From a virus, in the IMG/VR virus record IMGVR_UViG_3300044712_002690, positions 114,985-178,984 of that record: 64,000 nucleotides of DNA; one strand, 5' to 3'. A program made the position numbers and the translations under genes. The notes under the pieces were generated by a model. It searched no databases and was not told the origin of the DNA. It saw only the letters and a list, made by a program, of their open reading frames with translations. Positions within the stretch are counted from its first letter, which is position 1. Each line of letters starts with the position of its first letter. Positions 3,060 to 64,000 of this stretch are shown here, piece after piece.

Positions 3060-3064
3060 ATTTA

Positions 3065-4453: not shown

Positions 4454-4465
4454 TTAATTTAATCC

Positions 4466-8089: not shown

Positions 8090-8119
8090 TCAACTTAATC
8101 CTTACCAGGAACCTATATA

Positions 8120-12634: not shown

Positions 12635-12643
12635 ATAAATACC

Positions 12644-13309
12644 TTAAAATGCTGTTGTCAATCTTGTTAATGAGTAGTCAATAATAGCAGAGCCTGTTAG
12701 TCTTAATCTAATTGTTCCACCGCTTATATCTACTGTAATATTTAAAGAAGAGATAGCTGTACCTAATGTATTTGCAGCAAATACTGTATAATCTAATAAT
12801 GAACCATCTGTAACTGCTATTACTTTTCTAGTAGAAATATTTGTAGGCGTGCTTGTTTGTCTGATTGTAACCATCCATTCAACACTATTAAGATCAGTAA
12901 CTGCAATAGTATCTGCTGTATATCCTGAACTTATATTTTTATTAGTTTCTTTCTTTTTATAAATTGCTACAGCATCTAATTTACCAATTGCAGCCCTTAA
13001 ATCATCACCATCACTAATTACAATCGAACTAGAGTAATCAGGAAGTTCACTACCAAGTGAAGTTTTTCCCATAAATGTATTTTGATAAGCATCATCTGTT
13101 GGAATACTTGACCCATCAGTAAATTTAGTCCAGGCAGTATCCCCAGTACCAGTTTTATGCCAAAGGTCACCATTTGATGTTTGTGCGTAGAGTGAACCTT
13201 TATTAGCTACAACACCCGTACTTGTAGTTGGATCAGTAGAGCCATATCTAACGATAACACTACCGTCGATACTTAATCCTAAGCCTACTCGAAATAATTC
13301 TAATGACAT
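12644..13309 (-). CDS. short tail-fibre / tip protein
   Basis: 221 residues. The first 65 residues resemble the N-terminus of the neighbouring 1504-residue fibre (DPTTSTGVVANKGSLY, KTGTGDTAW). The C-terminal 90 residues (VEWMVTIRQ, STRKVIAVTDGSLLDYTVFA) resemble the C-terminal part of the protein at 13311-13775. It looks like an attachment domain joined to a small beta-rich tip. Confidence 0.75.
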   Translation of the reverse strand: MSLELFRVGLGLSIDGSVIVRYGSTDPTTSTGVVANKGSLYAQTSNGDLWHKTGTGDTAWTKFTDGSSIPTDDAYQNTFMGKTSLGSELPDYSSSIVISDGDDLRAAIGKLDAVAIYKKKETNKNISSGYTADTIAVTDLNSVEWMVTIRQTSTPTNISTRKVIAVTDGSLLDYTVFAANTLGTAISSLNITVDISGGTIRLRLTGSAIIDYSLTRLTTAF

Positions 13310-17183: not shown

Positions 17184-17185
17184 AC

Positions 17186-17347
17186 TTATTCCTCTTTATT
17201 TGTATCTTTAGTAACATCATCAATAGATTTATCTAATGACTTTTTTATAACTTCTTTAAAACAGGTATCAGAACAATACCACCAACCAGCAAAGGTAAAT
17301 TTTAAGTTTTCTTTTGATCCACAATTTCTACACACTTTTTTACTCAT
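17186..17347 (-). CDS. small zinc-ribbon protein
   Basis: 53 residues from MSKKVCRNCG. CxxC at the start and CSDTC further on form a four-Cys zinc site. The start at 17347 is chosen because GAGGAG in the end of the upstream gene is an ideal SD. A longer frame begins only at a non-ATG codon. Acidic C-terminus. Confidence 0.75.
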   Translation of the reverse strand: MSKKVCRNCGSKENLKFTFAGWWYCSDTCFKEVIKKSLDKSIDDVTKDTNKEE

Positions 17348-17705
17348 CTTTAATCTCCTCAATCCATTCAAGCTCACCATTAGTAAATCTAGCTTTGAAT
17401 TCTATTTCTGAATTATAAAAAATTATATCGCCATGGTAATTAGTATCTTTTAAACCAAGAACAACTCTTTTAATACTTCCTGCTATTCTACATACAGGTC
17501 TTTCATTCCATTCAGGTTTACCGTAGTAATATCTTTCCTCTTCAGGAATAGATATAAATTTAGCATTCTCTATTAATAGTCTTCCTTCTTGTGTAATAAT
17601 ATAATGATCTACTGCAGGATCAAAAGACTTAGTTTGAAATTCTTTATCAGAATAATCAATTTCATTGATAGGAATTCTAACTTGTATTGTATCAAATAGG
17701 CCCAT
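17340..17705 (-). CDS. conserved-looking hypothetical protein (MGLFDTI type)
   Basis: 121 residues, no membrane segment, mixed alpha/beta pattern. The opening MGLFDTIQV is seen in several phage hypothetical proteins; a related opening (FGTIQVP) occurs inside the protein at 18395-18802, so the two may be distant relatives. Its ATG shares one base with the upstream gene's TAA. No function is assigned. Confidence 0.7.
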   Translation of the reverse strand: MGLFDTIQVRIPINEIDYSDKEFQTKSFDPAVDHYIITQEGRLLIENAKFISIPEEERYYYGKPEWNERPVCRIAGSIKRVVLGLKDTNYHGDIIFYNSEIEFKARFTNGELEWIEEIKDE

Positions 17706-40468: not shown

Positions 40469-41230
40469 CTACTTGCTCCTTTTTCTACGATTTTTTGTTT
40501 GCTCGGCATACAAGCTGTTTAATTGATCAAGACCATTTTCTACGATCCTAATAACTTGTTTTACTGTATCAGGTCTAGATGCAGTTTTCATTTCTCGATA
40601 TGTTGCATCCAAACGTTTTTTAGCACGAGTAGCAAGCTCAGAAGAAACATCTGTTGGTGTTTGACTCGCTTTCTTTACTTCTCTACGTGCCCTAGTAAGG
40701 TCAGACCGTACAAGACGTTCAGGAAGACCAAATCGTCTAGCAAGTTGTTTTGCAGTTTCCTTAAAAGTAAGAGTCCCTTTACTTCTTGCTGCAGGTCTTG
40801 AAATAATATCATTATAAGACGCTTCAAATCGTTTGTAAAGATCCATTCGTTGCTTTCGAGTCATTTGACGACGAATTAGATTATCTACAACAACAAGACC
40901 AAGTTCATCGGATTGATCTAAAACCTCTGCAGTTTGAATAACAGGAACTGTTTCCATACCTTCTTGTTCAGCTACAAGCCACCGATGGTGTCCACAATAA
41001 ATAGTACCTTCAGGACTGATTACAAGAGGTTGAAGAATACCATTAGCTTTTATAGACTTACGAAGTTCTTCAAATTTCTCTGTAGACTCAGGATTACTGA
41101 TATGATTGAACTTGGAAGGCACCAATTTTTTAACAGGGTATTGAATGACTTTAGAAGTCATCTTAACACTAATTTTAGGGCTAACTTGTTCAGGTGTTTC
41201 CACTACTTGTTTTTCCATACTACTTTCCAT
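40469..41230 (-). CDS. ParB/Spo0J-like protein
   Basis: 253 residues from MESSMEK. YPVKKLVPSKFN, ELRKSIKANGILQPLVIS and IYCGHHRWLVAEQ form the ParB N-terminal domain with its GHHR box; NLIRRQMTRKQR and a helix-turn-helix (ETAKQLARRFGLPERLV) follow. Phage members serve in DNA segregation or as CTP- or DNA-dependent regulators. AGAGGTACTT sets this start; a longer one is not supported. Confidence 0.8.
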   Translation of the reverse strand: MESSMEKQVVETPEQVSPKISVKMTSKVIQYPVKKLVPSKFNHISNPESTEKFEELRKSIKANGILQPLVISPEGTIYCGHHRWLVAEQEGMETVPVIQTAEVLDQSDELGLVVVDNLIRRQMTRKQRMDLYKRFEASYNDIISRPAARSKGTLTFKETAKQLARRFGLPERLVRSDLTRARREVKKASQTPTDVSSELATRAKKRLDATYREMKTASRPDTVKQVIRIVENGLDQLNSLYAEQTKNRRKRSK

Positions 41231-41393
41231 AAGTACCTCTCGTAATATGAGCAAGGACACCAGCTACTTGCATCTTTTTAAGATGGGTAAGCTTCCCCAC
41301 AATCTTTTTGGAGTTAGCTCCAAGTTTCCTTTCTTTAGTAATAAAAGAAAGATCCGACTTAGAAATCTTGTTCGCGTAGCGTTTTTTCTTCAT
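41220..41393 (-). CDS. small basic protein
   Basis: 57 residues from MKKKRYANKI. Strongly Lys/Arg rich, no hydrophobic segment. GGAGTAGGAGC precedes the ATG. Upstream of and overlapping the ParB-like gene by 11 bases, so a DNA-binding partner is possible. Confidence 0.6.
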   Translation of the reverse strand: MKKKRYANKISKSDLSFITKERKLGANSKKIVGKLTHLKKMQVAGVLAHITRGTYGK

Positions 41394-50359: not shown

Positions 50360-50551
50360 TTAGAGTAGTTGTACAGTATCAACAGAATAAATTGGGATAC
50401 CATCTGAATCTTTTAACCAGTCAGTATCTTCAATTATATCCTGTTGATGTGTAGTAAAATAATTCATTACCTCTTCTAAACTTTTACTAGCAATAAAAGG
50501 ACGGTAGTATCCGTCCTTATCAACAAGTTGTAAAATATAAATGTTACTCAT
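50360..50551 (-). CDS. hypothetical protein
   Basis: 63 residues. Strands around an acidic helix (SLEEVMNYFTTHQQDIIED). ATGA overlap with the VWA gene end, so likely co-expressed with the MoxR-VWA pair. Confidence 0.62.
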   Translation of the reverse strand: MSNIYILQLVDKDGYYRPFIASKSLEEVMNYFTTHQQDIIEDTDWLKDSDGIPIYSVDTVQLL

Positions 50552-52230
50552 ACTTGTCTCCTTAATACTTGCTTACCATGATCTTTTATAACTTTCATAA
50601 TGTCTTTATACAAAAGATTAGGTAAACGAGAAAGCTGGTCATTATTATATTTCAAATAATAATCAACACAATCTTTAACATTACTCCCACCACTAGAAGA
50701 AAATTCAAGATAAAGTATCTTGACTCCATAGCTCCTAGCTTTCAAGAAAGCTTTTCTTGCTTCCTCAGTATTGTCAGGATGACCATCAGTAACAACTACA
50801 ATAAATTTGTCTCCATCCTGTTTAAGCAGATCAGGTAGCTCAAGATTAAGTGCTCCTGCTGTAGGAGTACCGCCTTGGTGATGAACCAATTGCTCTAATC
50901 TATTGAAGTGACCAATCTTATCATCCCAATCTCTTGCTACTTGACATCTATCAGTAAAGTACATAATCTTAGCTTTTACATTATTCTTTACACTACAAGC
51001 CTGATCAATTACAACTGACGTTTGGAGAACTTTATTCATTTGTGCTTTAGTCATTGATCCTGACTTATCAAGCAGAACAAGAACCCGAAGACCCTCAGCC
51101 AAACTTCTTTTAGTAGATTGATATACTCCTCTATCCTTACCTCTGAGTTTTCCTTTATAAAGGAACTCAGGATCAATCTCTCCTTCCTCTACTTCAGTTC
51201 TAACTACTTGCCTAGGTGCTCGCCACCCACCAGCAAATAGTTTGCTAAAGGCTTGAACGGATGAACGATAAGTTTTCAGTATCTCGTTTCGATAGGTAAT
51301 GTTCATTGAAGGTCTACTAATATCTTCTTTAACAGGAATACAATGTCCACCTGCTAAAGCTTTTTGAAGTTTATCTTTAAAATCTTCTCCAAGAAGAACT
51401 TCAGTACCTTCAAGCTCTTCCATATAAGGAGTAGACACAAGAGTTCCTTCTCCTTCAATAGGATTACCATCACCAGCAACTTTTTGTGCTTTCATTGCTT
51501 CTTCTTGAGCTTTCATTTGTTCAGTAATTTCTTTTACTTCCTCTGGGAACAACTGTTTAAGAACATTTACTACCTCAATCGTAATACCAATAGTATGCTC
51601 TGGACTAGAGAAGTTTCCTTTATACTTCGCTATAATAGGCAGTAAATGATTAGCAAAAATTGATTCCAGTTCAGTAGAAAGATCAAGCCTAACATCTATC
51701 AAAGAAAGCTGTGAACGGAAAAGCAATTTATTCACATCAGTCTTACCAATACCTAATTGAGAAAAAATCAGCCTCCTAAATTCTTTAAAGGATAAAGGAA
51801 GTAATTGAGATAAAATCTCATGGTGTTGTTTTTCAAGATGCTTTTCTATTCTTATATCTTCGAATAGATTAAGAACATTTTTAGTGAAAGGATCTCCTTT
51901 ACACTTAAACTGGAATTCAGTTAACTGAACGTTAGAATAAGTGTAAAGGATATGGGCTACCTCGTGCGCAGCAAACATCTTTATTTTCTGAAAGAATTCA
52001 AAAGACATATTCTTGATTAGAGGAAGATAAATAGTATATGTTCCTCTAACCTCTTTAAGATTCTTTTCATCATAAGGATGAAACTGCGTACAAGGCCAAT
52101 GACCCAATTCAATTTTAGTTGAACGCAAAAGGTGACCGGGAAGCACAGATGAGACAATAAAAGAAACTACATCTACAATTTCTTCTTCTCTAGTATATTT
52201 CAATTTATTTTTTCTCATTTGCTTCCTCAC
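50548..52230 (-). CDS. VWA-domain protein with HExxH peptidase-like N-terminus
   Basis: 560 residues. Residues about 77-100 contain FAAHEVAHILY, a zinc-metallopeptidase HExxH. The C-terminal VWA domain (about 380-545) shows the MIDAS: LVLLDKSGSM, then a conserved Thr/Gly region and VVTDGHPDN. An acidic linker (around 235-290) joins them. Together with the adjacent AAA+ ATPase it forms a MoxR-VWA (CobS/CobT-like) pair, in which the VWA protein presents a substrate to the ring ATPase. Substrate unknown. Confidence 0.83.
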   Translation of the reverse strand: MRKQMRKNKLKYTREEEIVDVVSFIVSSVLPGHLLRSTKIELGHWPCTQFHPYDEKNLKEVRGTYTIYLPLIKNMSFEFFQKIKMFAAHEVAHILYTYSNVQLTEFQFKCKGDPFTKNVLNLFEDIRIEKHLEKQHHEILSQLLPLSFKEFRRLIFSQLGIGKTDVNKLLFRSQLSLIDVRLDLSTELESIFANHLLPIIAKYKGNFSSPEHTIGITIEVVNVLKQLFPEEVKEITEQMKAQEEAMKAQKVAGDGNPIEGEGTLVSTPYMEELEGTEVLLGEDFKDKLQKALAGGHCIPVKEDISRPSMNITYRNEILKTYRSSVQAFSKLFAGGWRAPRQVVRTEVEEGEIDPEFLYKGKLRGKDRGVYQSTKRSLAEGLRVLVLLDKSGSMTKAQMNKVLQTSVVIDQACSVKNNVKAKIMYFTDRCQVARDWDDKIGHFNRLEQLVHHQGGTPTAGALNLELPDLLKQDGDKFIVVVTDGHPDNTEEARKAFLKARSYGVKILYLEFSSSGGSNVKDCVDYYLKYNNDQLSRLPNLLYKDIMKVIKDHGKQVLRRQV

Positions 52231-53192
52231 TTAATAAATTCTTCTTCAGTAACTCCTTCTTTATCTTCTACTCGATCTTCAAGATAAGGAGCAACCTCCT
52301 CCAACATGCCTTGCAGCTTATCAGTTACCAAGCAAGTTAAAGTAGTAACAAAGATACTTGTCTCTTGAGGAGACAGTAGCTTCGATACTTTGTCTATAAC
52401 TGCTTTTGGAGTATCGTCTTTGAAAGTCCAGACAGAAGATGAAGCACCAACATTCTTTTTAACAGCTTGAATACTTTTAGCTTCGTCTTCGGGAAGTCTA
52501 CTCAGGTAACCAATTTTAAATGCTTCCTCTAGACTCAATCCTACCCTAACCATTCGAGCGATAGAAATAAGACGTCGAGTAGAAGGAAGTATCGAATAGT
52601 TTCCTTTTCTAATAATTTTAGCAGAATCTAGAAGAGCTTTTGCATCCTCTTTAGTAAGCCCCTCTTCAATAAGAATGTCTGCCTCACGCTTAGTAAAGTT
52701 AAAGTGAACGAATTCAAAACGGTCAATAGATGCTAAGTCAAGTGCATTAGTATTATATTCAACCGAACCCTGCATGTCAGAGTTACCAGTAGCTATAATC
52801 CTAAAGTCCCCGCTAGCAGTAATAACTTCGTTAGTAGCTTCAACAAGAAGTTCTCCTGATTCAAGAACCTCATGAAGTTTAGAAGCTACATCCTCACTAA
52901 CCCTATCAAATTCATCAAGGATAAGAACTTTATTTTCCCTCATTGCTTTAACAAGAGGTCCATAAATGAATTTGGTTTGTTCATCAATCAATTCAAAGTG
53001 ACCGATTAGGTTAGAAGGTTTCATGTCATTAGAACATGAACAAAGAACGTAGTTACCAGGACCAGTCATAATACGAGCAAACGTAGTCTTACCACACCCA
53101 GCAGGGCCAAGCATATAAATGTTAAGTCCTGCCGAATAAAGTTTACGTGCAAGCGCATGTTCCTCTGTTTCATAATACTTATGCTCTTTCAT
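52227..53192 (-). CDS. MoxR/CobS-type AAA+ ATPase
   Basis: 321 residues. Walker A GPAGCGKT (29-36), Walker B VLILDEFDRV (89-98), then sensor 1 IIATGNSDMQG, the DRFEFV strand and C-terminal helical lid. The family builds hexameric rings that remodel protein complexes, usually with a VWA partner, here the next gene (ATGA overlap). Upstream of it is a terminator, so it starts the unit. Confidence 0.92.
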   Translation of the reverse strand: MKEHKYYETEEHALARKLYSAGLNIYMLGPAGCGKTTFARIMTGPGNYVLCSCSNDMKPSNLIGHFELIDEQTKFIYGPLVKAMRENKVLILDEFDRVSEDVASKLHEVLESGELLVEATNEVITASGDFRIIATGNSDMQGSVEYNTNALDLASIDRFEFVHFNFTKREADILIEEGLTKEDAKALLDSAKIIRKGNYSILPSTRRLISIARMVRVGLSLEEAFKIGYLSRLPEDEAKSIQAVKKNVGASSSVWTFKDDTPKAVIDKVSKLLSPQETSIFVTTLTCLVTDKLQGMLEEVAPYLEDRVEDKEGVTEEEFIK

Positions 53193-53289: not shown

Positions 53290-53511
53290 TTATGCCTCCC
53301 ATTGAATTGTAGCTATATTGCTTAATGACACTGCTCTCTTTGATTTAGTTACAATATCTCCTTTCTTATTCTTGACCCAGAAGGAGGAGAGAATAATCTT
53401 ATCCTCTTTGATTTTACTGTCTGCATAAACTCCACCACATCGAGATCCATTAACCATTCGGACTGCACATTGCTTACCAAGTTTGTCTTTTGAAAAGAAA
53501 GCTATATCCAT
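53290..53511 (-). CDS. hypothetical protein
   Basis: 73 residues from MDIAFFSKDKLG. Strand-rich with CGGVYADSK. TAGGAGGAACCAA supports this ATG. The longer frame lies inside the upstream coiled-coil gene and is rejected. Confidence 0.65.
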   Translation of the reverse strand: MDIAFFSKDKLGKQCAVRMVNGSRCGGVYADSKIKEDKIILSSFWVKNKKGDIVTKSKRAVSLSNIATIQWEA

Positions 53512-53521
53512 TTGGTTCCTC

Positions 53522-53890
53522 CTAGAGTTCTTCAATAAGAATTTCTTCTTTGGTTTTAGGGATAACAACCCCTTTAGCTTGAACAGCAGCATTTTCACCG
53601 ACAGCTTTAAAAGCGTCAGTAAGATTGATTTTAGCTGCTTCGTTGAATTTTTCTTGTCCGAATGTTTTAAGGAATTTGTCCTTATCTATCGAACGAGCAT
53701 ATTCAACAATTTTACTAACAAGTTTGTATCCCCTGTCAACAACAACTTGAGCTTCCTTAATGATGTTAATCAGAGCTGCAAGTTCTTTCTTGTCAGCTTC
53801 AATTTCACGACCGAGACGATTATACTCTTCTCGTTTCCTATCAATTTCACGTTGACGACGGAATGCTTCAGCAAGAAGATTTTTACTCAT
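53522..53890 (-). CDS. coiled-coil protein
   Basis: 122 residues. The first 60 residues are a long charged helix (RRQREIDRKREEYNRLGREI), then an Ala-rich region with a polar C-terminus. Possibly structural or an adaptor. An SD GGAGGC is present. Confidence 0.7.
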   Translation of the reverse strand: MSKNLLAEAFRRQREIDRKREEYNRLGREIEADKKELAALINIIKEAQVVVDRGYKLVSKIVEYARSIDKDKFLKTFGQEKFNEAAKINLTDAFKAVGENAAVQAKGVVIPKTKEEILIEEL

Positions 53891-53956: not shown

Positions 53957-54244
53957 CTAAATCTTTTTTACTAAGTCAGATGAAATAAAAAAAGATTCTA
54001 TTTGACTATTACCGCTTATTCTTAAGAAAAAACCATCTTTAAATAATTCTATCTTTTTAGAGGAAGGAATTTTTTGTCCTAAAGTTGCTATCATTCTATC
54101 AGGAATATAAACTTTATATTCAGTTTGAAATCCTTGTCCTTTTTCTTTAACTGCTTCTTCTAAAGTAATAAGTCTAAAGTCTACAAAAGGACTAATAACT
54201 AAATAGAACATATCTCTAATAAATTCTCTAAAGTTTCTAGTCAT
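53957..54244 (-). CDS. mini-protein family member 1 (diverged)
   Basis: 95 residues. The second half keeps the family core: MIATLGQKIP then a variable segment with FLRISG and an ending ISSDLVKK. The first half is replaced by a hydrophobic segment (DMFYLVISPFVDF). It is the most divergent and the last-transcribed copy of the array. Confidence 0.6.
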   Translation of the reverse strand: MTRNFREFIRDMFYLVISPFVDFRLITLEEAVKEKGQGFQTEYKVYIPDRMIATLGQKIPSSKKIELFKDGFFLRISGNSQIESFFISSDLVKKI

Positions 54245-54245
54245 A

Positions 54246-54470
54246 TTAATCCTCTGTTATTAGTTCTGGTGTTATTGTCCAGGATCCCCTAATTGTATCT
54301 GTTTGTGATCTTAATCTACTTTTACCATTAGCAAGCATTTCTAAGTAGAATTTGTTTGGGATATGTTGACCAAATAGATGATCTTTACTATTAGACCACG
54401 TCCAAGGTAGTTTATCTCTAAAATCTTCTCCGAATTCTTTTATAAGTTCTTCTTCTGTTTTAAATCTCAT
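54246..54470 (-). CDS. mini-protein family member 2
   Basis: 74 residues from MRFKTEEE. All family parts are present: KTEEEL, EFGEDF, LFGQHIP, RLRSQT and WTITPELITE. GAGGATTAAATAT lies before the ATG. Confidence 0.75.
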   Translation of the reverse strand: MRFKTEEELIKEFGEDFRDKLPWTWSNSKDHLFGQHIPNKFYLEMLANGKSRLRSQTDTIRGSWTITPELITED

Positions 54471-54474
54471 ATAT

Positions 54475-54687
54475 TTAATCCTCTGCAATAATAGACTTAT
54501 TAATCCACCACCTACCACGATTACATTTAATTTCTGTCTTACCTGTTTGTTGTAAACGACGTTCTATTACTTTTGGTACAGGTTGTCCTAGTAAATAATC
54601 CATTTCTCCATGTTGATTCATAATACTATATATTCTCCAATTTCTACCATGACTTTTTATCATTTCTTTTTCTGTTTTAAATCTCAT
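54475..54687 (-). CDS. mini-protein family member 3
   Basis: 70 residues. MRFKTEKEM, SHGRNWR, LLGQPVP, EIKCNRGRWWINKSIIAE. Gly-Arg-Trp replaces the usual RSQ..W, showing variation in the middle. GGAGTAAT before the ATG. Confidence 0.75.
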   Translation of the reverse strand: MRFKTEKEMIKSHGRNWRIYSIMNQHGEMDYLLGQPVPKVIERRLQQTGKTEIKCNRGRWWINKSIIAED

Positions 54688-54688
54688 A

Positions 54689-54904
54689 TTACTCCTCCGT
54701 TGTCATGTCACGTGAAATACTCCACGAACCTTCCATTTGTGATCTAATTGTTACCCAAGGAAATTTTTTAAGTACCTTTGCTTTTGAAGGAGGAAGTGTT
54801 TGACCAAGAAGATAATCCATTGCTTTAGGAAACGAACATTCTACTTTATTCCTCCAATTTCTGCCAAATTCTTTTTTCATTTCCTTTTCAGTCTTTACTC
54901 TCAT
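54689..54904 (-). CDS. mini-protein family member 4
   Basis: 71 residues. MRVKTEKEM, EFGRNWR, LLGQTLP, TIRSQMEGSWSISRDMTTE. Close to member 3 in its first 20 residues. Confidence 0.75.
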   Translation of the reverse strand: MRVKTEKEMKKEFGRNWRNKVECSFPKAMDYLLGQTLPPSKAKVLKKFPWVTIRSQMEGSWSISRDMTTEE

Positions 54905-55151
54905 CTTGTACCTCTTTTATAAAGTAGAATGGAAAAGCGTACCCATCCCTTCCTCCATTAGCATTAGTTTGATGTGAGATAATTTTATATTTGCCTTCCC
55001 TGTAAGTCTCTATGTCATGGTTAGCAATACGTTGTCCAAGAAAAACATCTTTTTCTGGTTTCCATCTAATTCCAACCCTGCTCTTAAACACTTCTCTCCA
55101 ATCTATTCCAAATTCTAATATAAGTTCTTCTTCAGATTTTATTATCCACAT
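54888..55151 (-). CDS. mini-protein family member 5
   Basis: 87 residues. IKSEEELILEFGIDWR, FLGQRIAN, then a longer variable loop (RDGYAFPF) before FIKEVQDE. Overlaps member 4 by 17 bases. Confidence 0.72.
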   Translation of the reverse strand: MWIIKSEEELILEFGIDWREVFKSRVGIRWKPEKDVFLGQRIANHDIETYREGKYKIISHQTNANGGRDGYAFPFYFIKEVQDESKD

Positions 55152-55392
55152 CTGATATCTCCTTTATCATATATCTTGGAATTAGCCACTCACCATTATC
55201 TATTCTCCATCTATTATTTACAAAAACTTGATGTCTAAATTGTATATATCTATCATCAGAATCTACTCTAAAATGATTTAATATTCGTTGACCAAGTAAC
55301 CATTCTTTATCTGGTTCCCAAAAGTGATCTTGATTTCTCCAATTCTTTCCAAATTCTTTAACCATCTCTTCATCTGTTTTTATGAATTTCAT
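55132..55392 (-). CDS. mini-protein family member 6
   Basis: 86 residues. KTDEEMVKEFGKNWRNQ, LLGQRILN, RHQVFVNNRW, GEWLIPRYMIKE. Similar to members 5 and 8 in its middle. Overlaps member 5 by 20 bases. Confidence 0.75.
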   Translation of the reverse strand: MKFIKTDEEMVKEFGKNWRNQDHFWEPDKEWLLGQRILNHFRVDSDDRYIQFRHQVFVNNRWRIDNGEWLIPRYMIKEISDVDNKI

Positions 55393-55437
55393 TTCTTTTT
55401 GCTCCTACATCTTTTCCTTTTTCGTAGGCATGTATTT

Positions 55438-55671
55438 CTAGCGTATTTCGTCATCCTTTACCATATATGGATAAATAGTCCACGACTCCCTCTCTTCCCA
55501 AGTTTGGCTTCTAAGTCTTATGGTGTTATTATTTATTAGAGATTGTGCAAATTTATCAGGAACTTTTATTCCAAAAAGATAATTCATTTCGGGTATTTTC
55601 CAATCAACACTATTTCTCCATTGTTCTCCATATTCGTTTATGAATTCTTCTTCAGTTTTGAACCTCAACAT
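55438..55671 (-). CDS. mini-protein family member 7
   Basis: 77 residues from MLRFKTEEE. NEYGEQWR, LFGIKVP (GQ replaced by GI), RLRSQTWEERESWTIYPYMV. The ATG has AAGGAGG before it; an upstream TTG is not needed. Confidence 0.75.
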   Translation of the reverse strand: MLRFKTEEEFINEYGEQWRNSVDWKIPEMNYLFGIKVPDKFAQSLINNNTIRLRSQTWEERESWTIYPYMVKDDEIR

Positions 55672-55936
55672 ATTCAACCTCCTTAATCATATATTTTGGA
55701 AGTAACCATTGACAAGCTTCTGAATTAGAAAAAATACCATTAAGACTAAGACCAAACATACGAAATCTAGCAACTATCCTATTTGGATCTGTTCTACTCG
55801 ATCCTATGCAATGGTTAGGTATCCTTTGACCAAGAATTATTTCTTTACTTGCTTTCCATTTAACATCTGCTTTGCGCCAATTTTCTCCAAATTCTTTTAC
55901 CATTTCCTCATTGGTCTTTACTATGTATATTTTCAT
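55652..55936 (-). CDS. mini-protein family member 8
   Basis: 94 residues. KTNEEMVKEFGENWRKA, ILGQRIPNH, a long variable middle and QWLLPKYMIKEVE. Resembles member 6. Overlaps member 7 by 20 bases. Confidence 0.75.
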   Translation of the reverse strand: MKIYIVKTNEEMVKEFGENWRKADVKWKASKEIILGQRIPNHCIGSSRTDPNRIVARFRMFGLSLNGIFSNSEACQWLLPKYMIKEVEYVEVQN

Positions 55937-55939
55937 ATA

Positions 55940-56194
55940 TTAATCCTCTACATCAACCTGAATGATTATTTTATTATTTACAAAACTTGCACAAGGAGAG
56001 GAGCTACATATCTGAGTATTCCAACCGCTTGAACCATACCTAAAAAATTTTGTAATAACTCGTTCCGGGATTCGTTGACCCAAATAGGAGGAAAGCATTT
56101 GTCGACTATGACTACATGAGAACGCACTAGTAGACCAATTGTCTCCAAATTCTGATATAAGTTCTTCTTTAGTTTTAAATCTATATATTTTCAT
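55940..56194 (-). CDS. mini-protein family member 9
   Basis: 84 residues. RFKTKEELISEFGDNW, YLGQRIPERV, then a Cys/Ser-rich divergent C-terminus (QICSSSPCASF). The end has lost the usual Trp. Confidence 0.72.
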   Translation of the reverse strand: MKIYRFKTKEELISEFGDNWSTSAFSCSHSRQMLSSYLGQRIPERVITKFFRYGSSGWNTQICSSSPCASFVNNKIIIQVDVED

Positions 56195-56418
56195 ATCTCC
56201 TCCTCTACAAGAAACGTTCTTCTAATAGCCCATAGATCCATTTGACTTCTCCAAGGTACCACACCCTGTTTCCCGTCTATAAGTAATTTTTTAATTCTAG
56301 ATGGGCACCTTTGTCCTAAAAGGTGATCTTTTAATATATTACTTCCCCAATTTCGTCTCCAACCTTCACCAAACTCTTTTTCAAATTCTTCCTTAGTTTT
56401 AATTCTATATATTTTCAT
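56191..56418 (-). CDS. mini-protein family member 10
   Basis: 75 residues. RIKTKEEFEKEFGEGWRR, LLGQRCPSR, WRSQMDLWAIRRTFLVEEE. Four-base overlaps with members 9 and 11. Confidence 0.76.
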   Translation of the reverse strand: MKIYRIKTKEEFEKEFGEGWRRNWGSNILKDHLLGQRCPSRIKKLLIDGKQGVVPWRSQMDLWAIRRTFLVEEEI

Positions 56419-56660
56419 ATGTTTTCCTCTACAAGGAGTTTTTTAACAACACACCAGCTTCCATCATGCCCTGGCATTGAAGTGTACTCTTTGGTTTTTA
56501 AATCTTCTACAATTCTTGGTGTAACACGTTGACCAAGTAGGTGATTTTTACCATCAGACAATATCCAACAAGCTGGATCATTTCTCCATAACACACGTTT
56601 CCAATCCTCTCCAAAATCCTTAATCATCTCTTCTTCAGTTTTAAATCTATATATTTTCAT
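56415..56660 (-). CDS. mini-protein family member 11
   Basis: 81 residues. RFKTEEEMIKDFGEDWKRV, LLGQRVTPRI, GSWCVVKKLLVEE. A representative member containing all the landmarks. Confidence 0.77.
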   Translation of the reverse strand: MKIYRFKTEEEMIKDFGEDWKRVLWRNDPACWILSDGKNHLLGQRVTPRIVEDLKTKEYTSMPGHDGSWCVVKKLLVEENI

Positions 56661-56670
56661 AACCTATTCC

Positions 56671-57168
56671 TTAATGAAGTTTTTCAAGAAGTTTCTTTAT
56701 CTTATGTATATCACCTGTCTTCTTGAGTTTGTTGATGTCATTAATCATTTTCGTAATACGTTTATCTTCAGGAATAATTTGTTTAGGTAATGGTGCTGCT
56801 ATTTGATATACTTTTTGTATACAAGACAAACAAATATTCATATAAAATCCACTAATACCTGATTCATAATGAAGAAATGCTTCACCTTTAAGTACAGGAG
56901 TATCACAACAGGAACAACTCCTTCTATTAGATTTAGCAAGAATAAAAGGTCTTATATCAACTGTAGTAGAAGGACTATGTGTCTGTAGATATCTACTATT
57001 TTCATTTAATTTACTTAAGCAACTAGAACAAATCGTTGCTCCTGATTTAGACTGTATGGGGTATCTAAGATATAGGCAAAGATCATTTTTCACTACAGGT
57101 TGGCTACAATGCCAACATTTAGTTTTCTTTGCAGAGTAAGTAACTAAGTTATTTAATATGATAGACAT
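56671..57168 (-). CDS. protein with two zinc-binding repeats
   Basis: 165 residues. Two similar units, each CxxC ... CxxC: CWHCSQP with ICSSCL, and CSCCDTP with ICLSCI, followed by a charged helical end. Interrupts the mini-protein array, so it may belong to the same system. Fold likely a zinc-binding repeat like small stress or signalling proteins. Confidence 0.7.
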   Translation of the reverse strand: MSIILNNLVTYSAKKTKCWHCSQPVVKNDLCLYLRYPIQSKSGATICSSCLSKLNENSRYLQTHSPSTTVDIRPFILAKSNRRSCSCCDTPVLKGEAFLHYESGISGFYMNICLSCIQKVYQIAAPLPKQIIPEDKRITKMINDINKLKKTGDIHKIKKLLEKLH

Positions 57169-57185
57169 ATATCACCTCCAGCTCT

Positions 57186-57386
57186 TTATACATCCTCTTC
57201 TACAATATCTTTATCAGTAAATGTATACATGTAAGGATGTTGACTCCTCCATCTATATACTCCGTAATTATCCTTAGTAGATAAAACATGATTAGGAATT
57301 CGTTGACCGAATAACCCGAACTCATGATTTGGATTACACATTTGATTCTTTTTCTCTTCCATTGTGACAAGTCTTTTTATTTTCAT
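57186..57386 (-). CDS. mini-protein family member 12
   Basis: 66 residues. Shortened N-terminal part (RLVTMEEKKNQ), then LFGQRIPNHV, YRWRSQHPYMY and DIVEED. The family ending and the GQRIP core identify it. Confidence 0.72.
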   Translation of the reverse strand: MKIKRLVTMEEKKNQMCNPNHEFGLFGQRIPNHVLSTKDNYGVYRWRSQHPYMYTFTDKDIVEEDV

Positions 57387-57595
57387 ATATCTTCCTCTTT
57401 CTTAAGAAAGTTCCTATGAATAATTACATTATGAGCATTCGTTCTAAGTACAAATTGACCACTGAGTGTAAGTAAGGAAAGAATTGGAATCCTTTGACCA
57501 GAACGTATAATAATCCAACTAGGTATTAGTATCTTCCAATTCTTTCCATAATCTTTTTCAAATTCTTCTTCTGTCTTAATTCGATACCATGGCAT
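57383..57595 (-). CDS. mini-protein family member 13
   Basis: 70 residues from MPWYRIKTEEEF. KDYGKNWK, SGQRIPIL, FVLRTNAHN and LKKEED. The ATG is preferred over a Met five codons upstream because GGGGGTTA stands before it. Confidence 0.73.
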   Translation of the reverse strand: MPWYRIKTEEEFEKDYGKNWKILIPSWIIIRSGQRIPILSLLTLSGQFVLRTNAHNVIIHRNFLKKEEDI

Positions 57596-57597
57596 AT

Positions 57598-57873
57598 CTA
57601 ACCCCCGCATCCAGTAGCAAAGTAGTTATACTTTTTAAACCCTTCCTCATGCGTCCAAGTAATTAGGAATCGTCCGATACCGAACATCGTTTCTCTACCA
57701 ACTTGAATAATAATTCCTGCGTCCGACTTACAATTAGGAAGAAGATGAATGTTCCACTCAACTCCTACATTCCCTCGTTCTTTTATAAGACGAGGAGCTT
57801 CCAAACGAATCGGCCAAGGTTTATTAAAAGTAAGATATACACAACCATTAGAATATTTGTTAATCATTTTCAT
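57598..57873 (-). CDS. hypothetical protein inside the array
   Basis: 91 residues. Strand-rich (GCVYLTFNKPWPIRLEAP, AGIIIQVGRETMFGIGRF). It lacks the LGQRIP core, so it is not counted as a family member, although its length and place suggest a relation to the array. Confidence 0.65.
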   Translation of the reverse strand: MKMINKYSNGCVYLTFNKPWPIRLEAPRLIKERGNVGVEWNIHLLPNCKSDAGIIIQVGRETMFGIGRFLITWTHEEGFKKYNYFATGCGG

Positions 57874-57933
57874 CCTCCCAAAATCTTTAATTTTATCATT
57901 AAGAGCTTTTCTTAAAAAGCTTCTTTCTGATTG

Positions 57934-58131
57934 CTACCTTTTTACTTTCCTAGCAGCCACTCCAGCCTTAGCGAAATTCATTCGCTTATATTCAATCCAT
58001 CCTTTTTTAATCAATACACCAACAAGATAATTAACTGAACGATCTTGCATTGATGCTTCTTGTTCAATCTCTTTTGCTATAGACTCTTCAATAGAACCAA
58101 AAAGTTGTTTTCGTTTTTCGGGTATAGGCAT
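57934..58131 (-). CDS. small DNA-binding-like protein
   Basis: 65 residues from MPIPEKRKQLF. Basic ends surround EQEASMQDRSVNYLVGVLIK, a pattern like ribbon-helix-helix or small helical regulators. The ATG is used because the longer frame starts at GTG without SD. Followed by a stem-loop (AGCTTTT..AAAAGCT). Confidence 0.55.
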   Translation of the reverse strand: MPIPEKRKQLFGSIEESIAKEIEQEASMQDRSVNYLVGVLIKKGWIEYKRMNFAKAGVAARKVKR

Positions 58132-58136
58132 AATTA

Positions 58137-58355
58137 TTACTCCTTTATTTCCTCTTCGATAATATCTCGTACATCTATCCACCACTTACCACCATTAACA
58201 TTAAACCAAATGCGCTGCAATGGTCCATATTCATGTTTAGTAGCCCACACTGCGTTAGATACTCTTTGTCCTACCCAAGGTGCTAAAGACAGATTACCAT
58301 GAGTATAACTTCTTTTTGTTAATTCCTCTCTTGTTTTAACTCTTCTAATTATCAT
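58137..58355 (-). CDS. mini-protein family member 14
   Basis: 72 residues from MIIRRVKTREEL. PWVGQRVSN, a WFNVNGGKWWIDVRDIIEEE ending. It is the first copy of the array in transcription order and is next to RtcB. Confidence 0.74.
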   Translation of the reverse strand: MIIRRVKTREELTKRSYTHGNLSLAPWVGQRVSNAVWATKHEYGPLQRIWFNVNGGKWWIDVRDIIEEEIKE

Positions 58356-58356: not shown

Positions 58357-59496
58357 TTAATCTCCACCAGCTTTAAAGTTATAGATAGGCTTCATAACAA
58401 ACTCAATATCAACTGTATCCTGGATAGCAGAGATAATAAGTTCCTTATCTTTATATACCATAGGAGATTCATCTAATGTATCTTGATTAACACAAGAGGT
58501 ATAAATCCCATCCATAGACTTTTGAAAGTCTTCTAATACTATAACTTCTTTAGCTTTCTTTCTAGATAGAATACGACCTGCACCATGAGGAGCAGAATAA
58601 TTCCAATCTTTATTTCCTTTACCAGTTCCGATAATAACACCGTCACGCATGTTAAGGGGAATAATAACTCTTTCTCCCTCTTGTGCAGAAATAGCTCCTT
58701 TACGAATGATATTATCTTTTCCAATATAATTATGAACACATTCAATTGCAGGTGCAATAGATTTTATATTGAAGAACTTAGTAAGAATAGTACGTAGGAT
58801 CATATCTCGATTACGTTCAGCATACCATTGAGCAACACGCATGCTATTAAGATATTCGGTACCTCCATTATTAAGAGGTAGGAATTCAAGATTCTTATAA
58901 GCGTCTCCAATGAACATTTCATTCATTAGCGCCTTAGCTTTTTTTTGATAGTAATCACATACTTTCAATCCGAAGTTACGTGAACCAGTATGGATAACCA
59001 ACCAATTTTGTCCCTCATGATGATCAATCTCAATAAAGTGATTACCTCCACCAAGAGTTCCAAGCGACCTTTCGGCAAGGCCAGGAGTTTGTTCTACTCT
59101 ATTCGCTACTTGAATAACTTTACCTATTCCATATTCATACCCACTATTCTTTAAATACTCTTTTAACTCTTTCTCATTAGCATGAGTAGCGAACCCAGCA
59201 GGAATATTATTCTTAATAAACTCATCGAACTTCTCAAGATTAGTTTCAGGAATAGGATACATTAGCATACCACACCCAATATCAACTCCTACAATATTAG
59301 GTATGACATAGTTATTGAGAGTCATAGTAAAACCAATAACAGAACCTTTACCTGCATGAGTATCAGGCATAATACGAATACTAGTATTAGCAAAGGCAGG
59401 ATGATTCAAGAAGGAATAAATTTGTGAAACAGTTTCAGGATCAATTACATCTATGTAAACTTTAGCTACATTATACTTACCTTTGTATACTAGCAT
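58357..59496 (-). CDS. rtcB: RtcB RNA ligase
   Basis: 379 residues, compact for the family (often 400-480). Signatures visible: VGVDIGCGM near 69-77, GGGNHFIEID near 150-159, HTGSRNFG near 171-178, and SAQEGERVIIPLNMRDGVII with SAPHGAGR in the C-terminal half (guanylated His and metal site). RtcB joins 3'-phosphate or cyclic phosphate RNA ends to 5'-OH ends using GTP and Mn. In phages it repairs tRNAs cut by host defence nucleases. An RlaP-like gene is at 15238-16026. Confidence 0.95.
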   Translation of the reverse strand: MLVYKGKYNVAKVYIDVIDPETVSQIYSFLNHPAFANTSIRIMPDTHAGKGSVIGFTMTLNNYVIPNIVGVDIGCGMLMYPIPETNLEKFDEFIKNNIPAGFATHANEKELKEYLKNSGYEYGIGKVIQVANRVEQTPGLAERSLGTLGGGNHFIEIDHHEGQNWLVIHTGSRNFGLKVCDYYQKKAKALMNEMFIGDAYKNLEFLPLNNGGTEYLNSMRVAQWYAERNRDMILRTILTKFFNIKSIAPAIECVHNYIGKDNIIRKGAISAQEGERVIIPLNMRDGVIIGTGKGNKDWNYSAPHGAGRILSRKKAKEVIVLEDFQKSMDGIYTSCVNQDTLDESPMVYKDKELIISAIQDTVDIEFVMKPIYNFKAGGD

Positions 59497-59741: not shown

Positions 59742-60488
59742 CTACAATACTTTAACATCGAATGTCTGGCAGACATATTCGATAAGAGCTTTTTGATAAG
59801 CTTCTCTTGTTTTTGTTCTTGCCATACCAGGAGCAGAGTTTACTTCGAATATCCACCATTCACCAGTAAAGTAATTAACCCCAAGATCAACAGCCCCAAA
59901 TACAAGACCACAAGCTTTAACTGCTCTTACACAATCTTCTGTAATGTCTTTACCAAACTCGATATTAGTATCTTCGTATTTATAACCATGATCAAGATTT
60001 CGTATCCATTCCCTTCCAGCAGATTTAGTTTTAGGAACTTTAACTGTCTTATAGAAAATCTTATCTCCTATAACATGAACACGAAATTCAAGATTACAAT
60101 GAATCATCTTCTCGAAATAAGCTCCACGATGTTTCTTTCTAAGATCCTTATACCTATTGATACGCTCCATTCCAACTCCGCAAGAATGTTCTCTCTTTTT
60201 TAATACTAAAGGACATTCTTGCTCACCAGGAAAATAATCGAAGAAAGCAGGAGAGGATACGCCAGCCTCTCCAAAAGCTTTCTTCATTTTAATCTTATCA
60301 ACACACATCTTAATTCCTTCGATAGGATTAAGATCAATTTCTTTTCTTTCATACTGTGTAGCTCCGAAACGGAAATACACTTGTTTATTAAGAAAAGGAA
60401 ATTGAAGCTGCTTATGTGTATCATGGGGACTTATTATGATTGGCGTATACATTTCTTGTTTTCTAGTAAACAATTTAAAGATATTCAT
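59742..60488 (-). CDS. RimK-like ATP-grasp ligase
   Basis: 248 residues. ATP-grasp elements in order: CPLVLKKREHSCGVGM near 92-107, the strand FRVHVIGDKIFYKTVKV near 144-160 and the metal-binding AVDLGVN / IFEVNSAPGM near 201-223. Such enzymes activate a carboxylate as acyl-phosphate and couple it to an amine. It stands with an amidotransferase and COOH-NH2 ligases, as in predicted phage peptide-modification clusters. Confidence 0.88.
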   Translation of the reverse strand: MNIFKLFTRKQEMYTPIIISPHDTHKQLQFPFLNKQVYFRFGATQYERKEIDLNPIEGIKMCVDKIKMKKAFGEAGVSSPAFFDYFPGEQECPLVLKKREHSCGVGMERINRYKDLRKKHRGAYFEKMIHCNLEFRVHVIGDKIFYKTVKVPKTKSAGREWIRNLDHGYKYEDTNIEFGKDITEDCVRAVKACGLVFGAVDLGVNYFTGEWWIFEVNSAPGMARTKTREAYQKALIEYVCQTFDVKVL

Positions 60489-61454: not shown

Positions 61455-63305
61455 CTAGTTAGATTCTCCATCACGTTCACTGTCGTCACTTGGAACAGGG
61501 TCAACTTCTTCTCCGCACTGTTGCTCCACTGTATTATAATAGATAGGAGCACTACTGAAAGTAGCAGTAAACCTAGTTGTACTAGTGTCTTGAGACCAAG
61601 GTGGAGGAGTAGATACTCGTCCTAGCCTCAATGACTCTAAGACTCCTCTTGGTTCCCTTTCGCTGCTTTGATTTGAGAAATAACTTCTTACATCCATGGG
61701 ACAATCAGAAGGTAAAGAACGTAGACGAGAACGAATAGCTCTTTTTATATCCGAGATAATTTGTTCTACTTGACTACTTTCTAATCGACCCATCCTAAAG
61801 GCAAAAGGCAATCCAGCAAGGAGAAGGTATTGTGGATTACCTCCTTGAGGATAAGGAGTAGCAGAGAATCCTCTAATGTCCAAACCACAACAAACTAATC
61901 CTCTCTGTTCAGCAAGACCAAAGAACCTAACTGGTACGCTACGACGAGTTGTCCGAATACTTCTAACTGCTTCTGTAAGTCTAATCCTTATAACAGGTTC
62001 CCAATCATCACTAAACTGTATGTTAAAGTTAGGTGGAAGATTAGGAGCTGCCTTTTTAACTTTGGGGACAGTCTTCTTAAACTTTTTGTTGTCCCAATAA
62101 GAAGCAATGTTATACTTATACGGATCTTGTTCTTTAAACTTCTTGATATAATCAAGATAGTAAGAAGCTTCGCCTTCAGTTAAACCTACTTGCATTAATT
62201 CTTCTACACTAGGTTCGCCAGTAGGATTAACCCAGAAGCTATGTCTCTTGAAATACAACTGCATGATTTGTTGAGCAAGCTTCATCGTTACAAGAGTCAT
62301 TGTAGGGTGACCAAAGATTGCTGACGGGGGAGTACGATATTCAAAGCCATGAGGCTGAGTACGATACTGACCCAGTCGACAATATTGACCACGCGCTTCT
62401 CCACTAAGCTTTAGCGTAGGTTGACCAATAAAGTAATCGAAAAGAGTAATAAGATTTTTAGGAGGATCAATAGGATGACCAACTCCTATATGGATATGAC
62501 CACCAAGAGGAAAATATCTACCTCCTACACTAAAGACATCCTCTTTAGGAACCATACTAGAAAATATACTGCGCATATTTTCTACAAATTGCTTAGGGGA
62601 GTCAGCAGGATCAGGTCTCAGTTCTACCTGATGTCCTGAACCATCTACCCCAAGCTTTTCGTCCCTAAAGTAAGCAGAGACATCTCCATTGTCTTCGTCA
62701 CTACGAAGATCAACCGCGCAACCATTAGCCATCAATTCAAACTCAGGATCTGCTCCAAGAGTAATTTCAGGTATCTCATAATGTTCATTTACCGTATTTA
62801 CTTCTTCAAGCAATCCTTGGCTATGGAGAGCTTCAATTATCTTCCAGAGAAGGTCTACGCCTAAAAGCGTATGTGTTAGATCGCAGACATACAATACATT
62901 GATGTCAGGAAGAAGATAACCAATGTGCTTACCATTCATATCTGTTAGATGCAACAATTCAGAAGGAGCATCGTCAGACTTTTCTATCTCACAACGACTG
63001 AATTGTGCATAACCTCGATCCCTATAACGTTCAGGACGATGTTTATCTCCTGCATCCTCTAGATTAAAAGACAACTTTAATTGTCTTTCTTTTTTAACAG
63101 CAATCACTTCCTCATTAGTGCAGTTAATAAATAAAGCATTTGTCCAGTTATAACCATCGAACCAAATTTGGCAATGGTTATTAGCTGAGGAGAAATACTT
63201 TTTAGCTTCAGGATATTTTGAAACAAAGAGGGGAAGGTATTCCCTCCCCTCTTGTTCCCGGTCCTGCATGCTTCGAAGGTCTATGTCAGACATTTGTACA
63301 TGCAT
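61455..63305 (-). CDS. COOH-NH2 ligase (phage amidoligase type 2)
   Basis: 616 residues. The glutamine-synthetase-like core starts at TLGADPEFELMANG (about 180-193). GGRYFPLGGHIHIGVGHP (about 262-279) and GEARGQYCRLGQYRTQPHGFEYRTP (about 303-328, written in parts: GEARGQYCRLG and HGFEYRTP) are the active-site blocks. The last 100 residues are low-complexity and acidic. The N-terminal 175 residues are extra. Predicted to form amide bonds with ATP. AGGAGG precedes the ATG at 63305. Confidence 0.87.
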   Translation of the reverse strand: MHVQMSDIDLRSMQDREQEGREYLPLFVSKYPEAKKYFSSANNHCQIWFDGYNWTNALFINCTNEEVIAVKKERQLKLSFNLEDAGDKHRPERYRDRGYAQFSRCEIEKSDDAPSELLHLTDMNGKHIGYLLPDINVLYVCDLTHTLLGVDLLWKIIEALHSQGLLEEVNTVNEHYEIPEITLGADPEFELMANGCAVDLRSDEDNGDVSAYFRDEKLGVDGSGHQVELRPDPADSPKQFVENMRSIFSSMVPKEDVFSVGGRYFPLGGHIHIGVGHPIDPPKNLITLFDYFIGQPTLKLSGEARGQYCRLGQYRTQPHGFEYRTPPSAIFGHPTMTLVTMKLAQQIMQLYFKRHSFWVNPTGEPSVEELMQVGLTEGEASYYLDYIKKFKEQDPYKYNIASYWDNKKFKKTVPKVKKAAPNLPPNFNIQFSDDWEPVIRIRLTEAVRSIRTTRRSVPVRFFGLAEQRGLVCCGLDIRGFSATPYPQGGNPQYLLLAGLPFAFRMGRLESSQVEQIISDIKRAIRSRLRSLPSDCPMDVRSYFSNQSSEREPRGVLESLRLGRVSTPPPWSQDTSTTRFTATFSSAPIYYNTVEQQCGEEVDPVPSDDSERDGESN

Positions 63306-63313
63306 ACAGCCTC

Positions 63314-64000
63314 CTAATACGAAATACCTTGTCTAGCACGAACAACCAGAGCAGCGATAATATCGCTATTTTCTTCAGGAGAAAGTGCGCCAGTCCGGAA
63401 AGCATAAGGCAGACCGACGACGACAGTTTCATCATTGTCGCCATGATTCGGATGACCAACCGTCTCGAAGTTAGTTACCGAGATACCAGCGACAACACGA
63501 CCGCGTTTAGCAGCCAAGCCGTAGAGAAGGAAACGATACGAGTCACGAGCTTTAAGATCTTTAATCGCTGCCTTCACTTGAGCTTTAATTTCTTCACTCC
63601 AGTCATCGCTAAAGTCAACTCGAATAGGTTCGTCAGGAACAGCAGCCATTTCTGCTTCTTTGCTAAACCGTTCGGGTACCCAAGCGGCACAGACATTCTC
63701 GGAAGAATGAACCGAACGGAACGAACGAACGTACTCGACATAGAAGGTAGCTTCCTCAGCAGTCAGACCCAAGGCAATCAGATCAGCTTGATTAGCAGAC
63801 CCTTTTTCCTTGATAGTAAATTCTTCCTCGTCAATATACTTTTTCATGACAAGGTCAAGAATTTTATAAGTCAGATAAGTCATCTGAGGATTGCTGAACG
63901 TACCCGACGACGGCGTACGGTATTCGAAGCCATGGGGTTGACCACGATGCGCGCTCAACCGACCATAATCTCCACGAGCAGTACCATTCATTTTCATGCT
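63314..64000 (-). CDS. COOH-NH2 ligase paralog, partial
   Basis: 229 codons are seen; the frame is open at the right window edge, so the N-terminus is missing. TARGDYGRLSAHRGQPHGFE and the C-terminal part (FSDDWSEEIK, YGLAAKRGRVVAGISV, VGLPYAFRTG) align with the C-terminal half of the 61455-63305 protein, without its acidic tail. Codons are GC-richer than in all neighbours (many GTC, GAC, CGT). Confidence 0.85.
   Translation of the reverse strand, partial: SMKMNGTARGDYGRLSAHRGQPHGFEYRTPSSGTFSNPQMTYLTYKILDLVMKKYIDEEEFTIKEKGSANQADLIALGLTAEEATFYVEYVRSFRSVHSSENVCAAWVPERFSKEAEMAAVPDEPIRVDFSDDWSEEIKAQVKAAIKDLKARDSYRFLLYGLAAKRGRVVAGISVTNFETVGHPNHGDNDETVVVGLPYAFRTGALSPEENSDIIAALVVRARQGISY

What the first reader, a model, noticed from the sequence alone, without database searches (positions are those of the whole stretch)
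53957..58355. Fourteen-member array of related mini-proteins (KTEEE...EFGxxW...LGQRIP)
Fourteen consecutive or nearly consecutive genes of 65-95 residues share an N-terminal KTEEE and EFGxxWR, a central LGQRIP, and an Arg-x-Gln / Trp / acidic ending, with strongly variable segments between. They are joined by 4-20 base overlaps. Only a two-repeat zinc protein, a 91-residue protein and a small basic protein interrupt them. Retained core plus variable segments suggests diversifying selection, as in anti-defence, toxin-neutralising or receptor-blocking families. I recognise no named family.
Basis: partly seen in the sequence, partly recalled or inferred. Interest (0 to 1): 0.78.

Follow-up and report, generated by a model that had tools for sequence, protein, structure and literature searches.

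The report
Phage array of fourteen related mini-proteins
A large uncultured phage carries fourteen tandem copies of one small, previously unnamed protein domain that unrelated large phages have multiplied independently; it is probably a set of diversified binding proteins used against the host, but what they bind is unknown.

Summary
Fourteen adjacent or nearly adjacent minus-strand genes (53957-58355) encode one homologous 66-95 aa domain: leave-one-out HMM E-values run from 8e-23 to 7e-5, and a profile built only from other phages finds 12 of the 14. The family matches nothing in Pfam, PHROGs, PADLOC, the PDB by sequence or fold, or BFVD, and no isolate phage out of 50,697 records. It does occur in 13 other uncultivated phage contigs (15-281 kb). 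Four of these hold small arrays (6, 4, 3 and 2 copies); in others it is a module of a larger protein. Expansions are mostly lineage-specific, and truncated copies show birth-and-death turnover.

AlphaFold2 gives a confident fold (pLDDT 89) without known counterparts. Its C-terminal half resembles, by profile and secondary-structure order, SH3-like (Mib-repeat-type) phage mini-proteins, so I read it as an SH3-derived binding module. This link is suggestive, not proven.

The 'acidic ending' largely coincides with the Shine-Dalgarno sequence of the next gene. Diversifying selection could not be shown. Most likely these are accessory host-interaction or counter-defence binders in a co-transcribed operon. 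The family is new; tandem arrays of small phage proteins are a known kind.

The parts
53957..54244 (-). member 14 (last in the operon), 95 aa, divergent, N-terminal extension
   Evidence: leave-one-out E 6.1e-7; external-only profile E 0.002
54246..54470 (-). member 13, 74 aa; sequence modelled by AlphaFold2
   Evidence: leave-one-out E 8.4e-23; pLDDT 89.3, pTM 0.74
54475..54687 (-). member 12, 70 aa
   Evidence: leave-one-out E 1.6e-15
54689..54904 (-). member 11, 71 aa
   Evidence: leave-one-out E 1.7e-17
54888..55151 (-). member 10, 87 aa
   Evidence: leave-one-out E 5.2e-12
55132..55392 (-). member 9, 86 aa
   Evidence: leave-one-out E 1e-18
55438..55671 (-). member 8, 77 aa
   Evidence: leave-one-out E 9e-20; best hit of the external-only profile, E 1.7e-21
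55652..55936 (-). member 7, 94 aa
   Evidence: leave-one-out E 1.2e-22
55940..56194 (-). member 6, 84 aa
   Evidence: leave-one-out E 3e-15
56191..56418 (-). member 5, 75 aa
   Evidence: leave-one-out E 2.8e-19
56415..56660 (-). member 4, 81 aa
   Evidence: leave-one-out E 1e-18
56671..57168 (-). interrupting 165-aa protein with two CxxC/CxxC zinc-ribbon-like repeats
   Evidence: sequence; Pfam matches all below cut-off
57186..57386 (-). member 3, 66 aa, divergent (no EFGxxW)
   Evidence: leave-one-out E 7.7e-9
57383..57595 (-). member 2, about 70 aa (ATG at 57595; an upstream ATG at 57610 is also possible)
   Evidence: leave-one-out E 7.8e-10
57598..57873 (-). interrupting 91-aa protein of unknown family
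   Evidence: no Pfam or PHROG match
57934..58131 (-). interrupting small basic protein, possibly ribbon-helix-helix
   Evidence: sub-threshold Pfam RHH_5 match, E 0.03
58137..58355 (-). member 1, 72 aa, divergent; directly behind rtcB
   Evidence: leave-one-out E 6.7e-5
58357..59496 (-). RtcB-type RNA ligase directly upstream in the same orientation
   Evidence: Pfam RtcB E 3.2e-64

Best explanation
The array is a lineage-specific, diversified set of one small intracellular binding domain, translated gene by gene from one co-directional operon. Each copy is a compact alpha/beta module. An invariant scaffold (KT..E..G.W, a W/F-x3-M..L.G helix, W-I...M at the end) holds the fold. The parts that differ between copies are the loop before the M..L.G helix, the helix after LGQRIP, and the hairpin loop. 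The C-terminal half is probably derived from an SH3-like (Mib-repeat-type) barrel, a fold commonly used to bind peptides or proteins. Copies arise by tandem duplication at a repeated 44-77 nt junction (tail codons + Shine-Dalgarno + start + KTEEE), so a new copy brings the next gene's ribosome-binding site with it; they then diverge or decay. I infer that the different copies bind different host targets (defence or housekeeping proteins) during takeover. Shown: homology, absence from known families, confident predicted fold, recurrent expansion, self-contained junctions, decayed copies in relatives, use as a module in larger proteins, and absence from sampled cellular genomes. Inferred: duplication at the junction, the SH3 derivation (moderate), protein binding, and host or defence targets (weakest step).
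For: Homology. Fold pLDDT 89.3, pTM 0.74. Conserved scaffold with variable segment lengths: K4-G14 10-11 residues, G34 to the last hairpin strand 16-39. SH3 link: profile-profile p 0.0021 in the expected register, 0 of 150 column-shuffled profiles score as high; the SH3-type profile ranks members above background, Mann-Whitney p 3e-17 (members are related so this overstates it); the SH3-type family (pLDDT 96.7) has the same helix-G-strand-strand-strand-turn-strand order and matches Mind bomb Mib repeats, ribosomal L21e and KOW folds. Module use: fused to an isochorismatase-like domain (L023), to another phage mini-domain (L027, L069) and to a KOW-like stretch (L120). Net charge not conserved (pI 4.9-9.9), which speaks against a common nucleic-acid or DNA-mimic role. 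Expansions mostly group by phage (0 of 500 shuffles as low for the window; L107 copies one clade 99/91). Self-contained junctions. Decayed copies: L107 8814-9320, L027 1974-2120. Zero matches in 395 Bacteroidota and one weak partial match in 398 Bacillota genomes.
Against: No target, expression or toxicity data. No PADLOC similarity apart from one chance-level match. No local promoter above chance, so the strong private early promoters of classical takeover modules are not seen. Elevated pN/pS in variable segments is not significant on independent pairs. Foldseek with the model itself finds no SH3 structure, so the SH3 derivation rests on profile and secondary-structure order. Neighbours differ between phages, so no functional partner is implied.
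Confidence: 0.45

Rival explanations
1. The array is mostly a neutral or weakly selected gene accordion: tandem duplication at the repeated junction makes copies faster than they are lost, and they drift apart under relaxed constraint with little function per copy.
For: Repeated junction DNA in up to 10 copies; truncated copies in relatives; pN/pS near 1 in variable segments of L107 with no significant difference between segments.
Against: All 14 window copies are intact with start codons and mostly good Shine-Dalgarno sites despite strong divergence, which needs long purifying selection on each; the scaffold is strongly conserved across phages.
Confidence: 0.15
2. The domain is a virion-associated or packaged module: in relatives it sits in proteins whose modules are joined by P-x-Y-x-P-K/R-K/R linkers followed by (V/I)LE-like sites, which could be cut by a prohead protease, so the mini-proteins may be internal head or ejected proteins.
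For: Linker or tail motif PNYxPKK in L023, L118, L141, L055, L075 and L107.
Against: The motif is absent from the window; the window array lies with rtcB, MoxR/VWA and ATP-grasp genes and away from the probable tail genes at 0.8-13 kb; no structural family match.
Confidence: 0.12
3. The copies assemble with each other into a hetero-oligomer (a ring or scaffold with several subunit types).
For: Adjacent, individually translated paralogues of one fold; tight junctions would give similar amounts.
Against: Copy number varies from 1 to 14 between phages; single copies occur inside unrelated proteins.
Confidence: 0.1
4. They are RNA-repair accessory factors that work with RtcB (window) or the RNA 2'-phosphotransferase near the L107 array.
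For: rtcB lies directly upstream; an RNA 2'-phosphotransferase lies 3.1 kb upstream of the L107 array.
Against: In L141, L136 and L077 the neighbours are chaperones, a large unknown protein and other mini-proteins; charge is not conserved.
Confidence: 0.08

Closest known systems
SH3-like (Mib-repeat/KOW-type) phage mini-domains of the KVGD...DM..G...W.WTPEM type (Saphexavirus and other Firmicutes phages)
   Same: Similar size; conserved M-x-x-x-x-G helix end, W-x-W/I and E/D-M ending; same order of secondary structure in the C-terminal half; profile p 0.002. In phage G004 KTEEE and KVGD-type genes sit in one cluster and share a C-terminal tail.
   Different: The N-terminal KVGD strand pair is replaced by a KTEEE helix; an extra variable helix follows LGQRIP; whole-model Foldseek does not give SH3.
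SPO1 host-takeover module (26 mostly small early genes; PMC6873191)
   Same: A cluster of many small co-directional phage genes with good ribosome-binding sites.
   Different: As far as I know the SPO1 proteins are mostly unrelated to each other; they have strong promoters and several were shown to slow host growth; here the copies are paralogues without recognisable private promoters.
Anti-CRISPR / anti-defence islands
   Same: Small, variable accessory phage proteins; a small possible RHH protein inside the array could act like an anti-CRISPR-associated regulator.
   Different: No similarity to known families; no inhibitor activity known; the RHH match is below cut-off.

Membership tests
SH3-like / Mib-repeat phage mini-domain | Significant profile similarity over the domain | tested here: inconclusive
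   hhalign p 0.0021, probability 13%, 44 columns; 0 of 150 shuffles as high
SH3-like / Mib-repeat phage mini-domain | SH3-like barrel in the predicted structure | tested here: inconclusive
   Same strand/helix order in the C-terminal half, but Foldseek of the KTEEE model returns no SH3 structure
SH3-like / Mib-repeat phage mini-domain | N-terminal KVGD strand pair | tested here: not met
   Replaced by R-F/I-K-T + helix in the 36 aligned members
SPO1-type host-takeover module | Cluster of small co-directional genes with good ribosome-binding sites | tested here: met
SPO1-type host-takeover module | Strong private early promoters | tested here: not met
   Promoter-like sites not above shuffles (20 against 30.5 expected); other promoter types are not covered
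SPO1-type host-takeover module | Host growth inhibition on expression | not testable with these tools
   needs expression assays
Known anti-defence proteins | Similarity to catalogued families | tested here: not met
   No Pfam match; best PHROG E 0.0086 over 20 residues; PADLOC, which covers defence rather than anti-defence proteins, gives one chance-level match
Known anti-defence proteins | Inhibits a defence system | not testable with these tools
   needs plaque assays
Virion internal / packaged proteins | Cleavable targeting sequence or linker | tested here: not met
   P-x-Y-x-P-K/R linker present in relatives, absent in the window; other targeting sequences not tested

The most novel reading that the evidence does not exclude
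Large phages keep 'binding-domain cassette arrays': interchangeable mini-domains of a few small folds (KTEEE, KVGD/SH3, others) placed in front of a common 3' tail and translation signal, duplicated and swapped to generate a repertoire of binders against host targets, analogous in logic to variable immune repertoires but on the phage side.
Probability: 0.15. Interest if true: 0.85.

Novelty: new variant of a known kind. Interest (0 to 1): 0.5.

Why it matters
It adds a domain family that is absent from the standard libraries and from 50,697 isolate phage records at BLAST sensitivity, yet has been amplified independently in several large uncultivated phages. If the copies are distinct binders, each is a candidate host-target inhibitor, and the array becomes a ready panel for finding new defence or housekeeping targets. 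The junction design, in which the ribosome-binding site of the next gene is coded in the previous gene's tail, shows how such arrays can grow without breaking expression.

Tried and rejected
- tblastn of members or consensus sequences against isolate phages: only E >= 0.6 matches. The recurring Acinetobacter phage match (E 2) starts upstream of the annotated gene and lacks the second half of the domain; not accepted.
- PHROG 21045 (9 of 36 members, best E 0.0086): covers only about 20 residues of the KTEEE helix; not accepted.
- PDB by sequence: best E 0.41. PDB and BFVD by fold: nothing at E below 1.
- A nucleic-acid-binding or DNA-mimic role for the whole family: net charge runs from -3.6 to +5.5 among window copies.
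- Relatives of the window phage through its VWA protein: none found, so orthologous arrays could not be compared.
- Positive selection as a shown fact: rejected after the independent-pair test.
- Terminase search with phrog_2 in the 179-kb record: no match, so the phage could not be placed; RtcB is nearest to Clostridioides and Bacillus phages (44-51% identity).
- Literature searches for an already described array of this kind gave nothing relevant except the SPO1 precedent.
Full report
WHAT IS THERE. The window is bases 114985-178984 of a 178,984-base virus record. Between rtcB (58357-59496) and a pair of small unknown genes (53290-53890), followed by a MoxR/VWA pair (50548-53192), lie 14 minus-strand genes for one small domain, interrupted by three other small genes. 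Leave-one-out profiles recover every copy (E 8.4e-23 to 6.7e-5) and no non-member below E 0.024. A profile made only from other phages still finds 12 copies, 11 of them at E <= 1e-8. No other copy exists in the record. The array is therefore real and not a chance of low complexity or composition.

ANATOMY. In an alignment of 36 members E8 and G34 are invariant; K4, T5 and G14 are nearly so, and R2, W17, W/F25, M29, L32, W64, I66 and M70 are strongly conserved. Positions 19-24, 26-28, 38-48 and 50-63 vary most, and the segment from G34 to the last hairpin strand varies in length from 16 to 39 residues. AlphaFold2 on the 74-aa copy 54246-54470 with this alignment gives pLDDT 89.3 and pTM 0.74: short strand, helix, two short helices ending in L-x-G, a variable helix, a beta hairpin, a turn and a last strand. 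Foldseek finds no counterpart in the PDB or among predicted viral structures. Pfam, PHROGs, PADLOC and PDB sequence searches find no family.

THE ACIDIC ENDING. At 11 of 14 junctions behind a member, the Shine-Dalgarno sequence of the next gene lies inside the member's last codons (for example GAG GAG GAG = Glu-Glu-Glu directly before ATATG). For other window genes this is so in 38 of 110 (Fisher p 0.002; 0.02 if only genes with a recognisable site are counted) (the gene calls for this control are my own crude ones). The last six residues are 43% acidic in members against 17% elsewhere. I therefore read much of the acidic ending as translation signal, although relatives with other tails also often have T-E at this place. 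The most repeated DNA in the array is this junction plus the start of the next gene (families of 44-77 nt, up to 10 copies), a plausible substrate for tandem duplication.

RELATIVES. The family occurs in IMG/VR contigs of 15-281 kb. Arrays: L107 (six, one of them truncated), L136 (four), L141 (three), and phage G004 (two, 8.9 kb apart). Single or fused copies: L023 (behind an isochorismatase-like domain, by motif only), L027 and L069 (with another phage mini-domain), L120 (before a KOW-like stretch), L118 (in a protein with repeated linkers), L093, L055, L075 and a distant one in L147. Among isolate phages tblastn finds none. Among 793 cellular genomes of Bacteroidota and Bacillota one weak partial match appeared, which I take as chance; the phage records searched the same way are the positive control. 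A tree places copies mostly by phage: L107 copies are one clade (99/91), and one clade for the window copies is not rejected (AU p 0.21); the clustering of window copies exceeds all 500 shuffles. Expansion has thus been recurrent and mostly lineage-specific. Truncated copies in L107 and L027 show birth and death.

SELECTION. Window copies are too divergent for dN/dS. In the youngest array (L107) pooled pN/pS is 0.21 in the N-terminal helix, 1.1 and 1.4 in the two variable segments and 0.92 overall. Two independent pairs give no significant difference (p 0.39). Constraint on the scaffold is clear; positive selection is not shown.

FOLD ORIGIN. A set of phage mini-proteins (KVGD...DM..G...W.WTPEM) was chosen because of the similar end motif. 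Its profile aligns with the KTEEE profile in the expected register (p 0.0021; 0 of 150 column shuffles as high), members rank above background with it, and its confident model has the same element order from the M..G helix onwards. That model matches Mind bomb Mib repeats, ribosomal L21e, KOW and SH3 structures with Foldseek probabilities up to 1.0, though E-values stay at or above 0.01. I take SH3 derivation of the C-terminal half as likely but unproven: the comparison family was picked after seeing the motif, hhalign gives only 13% probability, and direct Foldseek of the KTEEE model gives no SH3 hit.

MECHANISM. A compact module with a rigid scaffold, variable loops and no conserved charge (pI 4.9-9.9), used alone in arrays and as a part of diverse proteins, fits a protein- or peptide-binding role. 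In a gene cluster with RtcB, a CxxC protein and AAA/VWA genes, outside the probable tail genes, the most economical reading is a set of accessory host-interaction or counter-defence factors. SPO1 provides the precedent of a cluster of small proteins that shut down host processes (PMC6873191). The host is not known; strong Shine-Dalgarno sites and the nearest RtcB relatives (Clostridioides and Bacillus phages, 44-51% identity) suggest Bacillota.

VERDICT. Observation confirmed with small corrections; interpretation partly supported. The family is new, recurrently expanded and worth testing; arrays of small paralogous phage proteins as such are not a new kind.

Noticed in passing
L353 (phage G004) 6019-6300, 6991-7281, 7724-8002, 8028-8234, 8218-8529, 8502-8756, 14885-15202: Small proteins of different domain types (KTEEE, KVGD/SH3-like, others) end in the same C-terminal tail, (E/D)xxQI(I/V)LNQ(D/E)(N/I). 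The codons differ synonymously, so the tail seems conserved as a peptide (a tag?), not only as DNA.
   Followed up: partly
L023 171-2420 and 2410-4872; L118 1037-2488: Long proteins made of repeated modules joined by P(N/S/D)Y-x-P(K/R)(K/R), often followed by R(V/I)LE-x-LNE. The same motif ends KTEEE proteins in L107, L141, L055 and L075. Possible polyproteins cut by a prohead protease, or a shared tag.
   Followed up: partly
L353 (phage G004): The 236-kb phage G004 carries further tandem mini-protein arrays of other families (for example 9244-10623, 10739-11444, 16724-17438, and IRIALN...CxEPGxxC genes at 4037-4943).
   Followed up: no
L027 2271-2576 and L077 4465-4791: A homologous coiled-coil-like protein (SAAYDDAENxKID, E 2e-23) lies next to KTEEE genes in two otherwise different phages; unknown in PHROGs and in isolate phages.
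   Followed up: partly
window 61455-63997: Two adjacent genes with phiEco32-like COOH-NH2 ligase domains, plus an ATP-grasp protein (59742-60488) related to a PHROG named ribosomal protein S6 glutaminyl transferase: a possible peptide-ligase cluster.
   Followed up: partly
window 840-13309: Four paralogous genes, two of them with laminin-G/concanavalin-like domains: probably receptor-binding or tail-fibre genes.
   Followed up: no
window 50548-53192: MoxR-type AAA ATPase and VWA protein pair downstream of the array region.
   Followed up: no
window 16023-17183 and 40469-41260: A radical SAM/SPASM protein and a ParB-N-domain protein in the phage.
   Followed up: no
L107 4384-4917 and 9972-10913: RNA 2'-phosphotransferase and a PRPP synthetase flank the relative array; DnaJ and ClpP follow about 5 kb later.
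   Followed up: no
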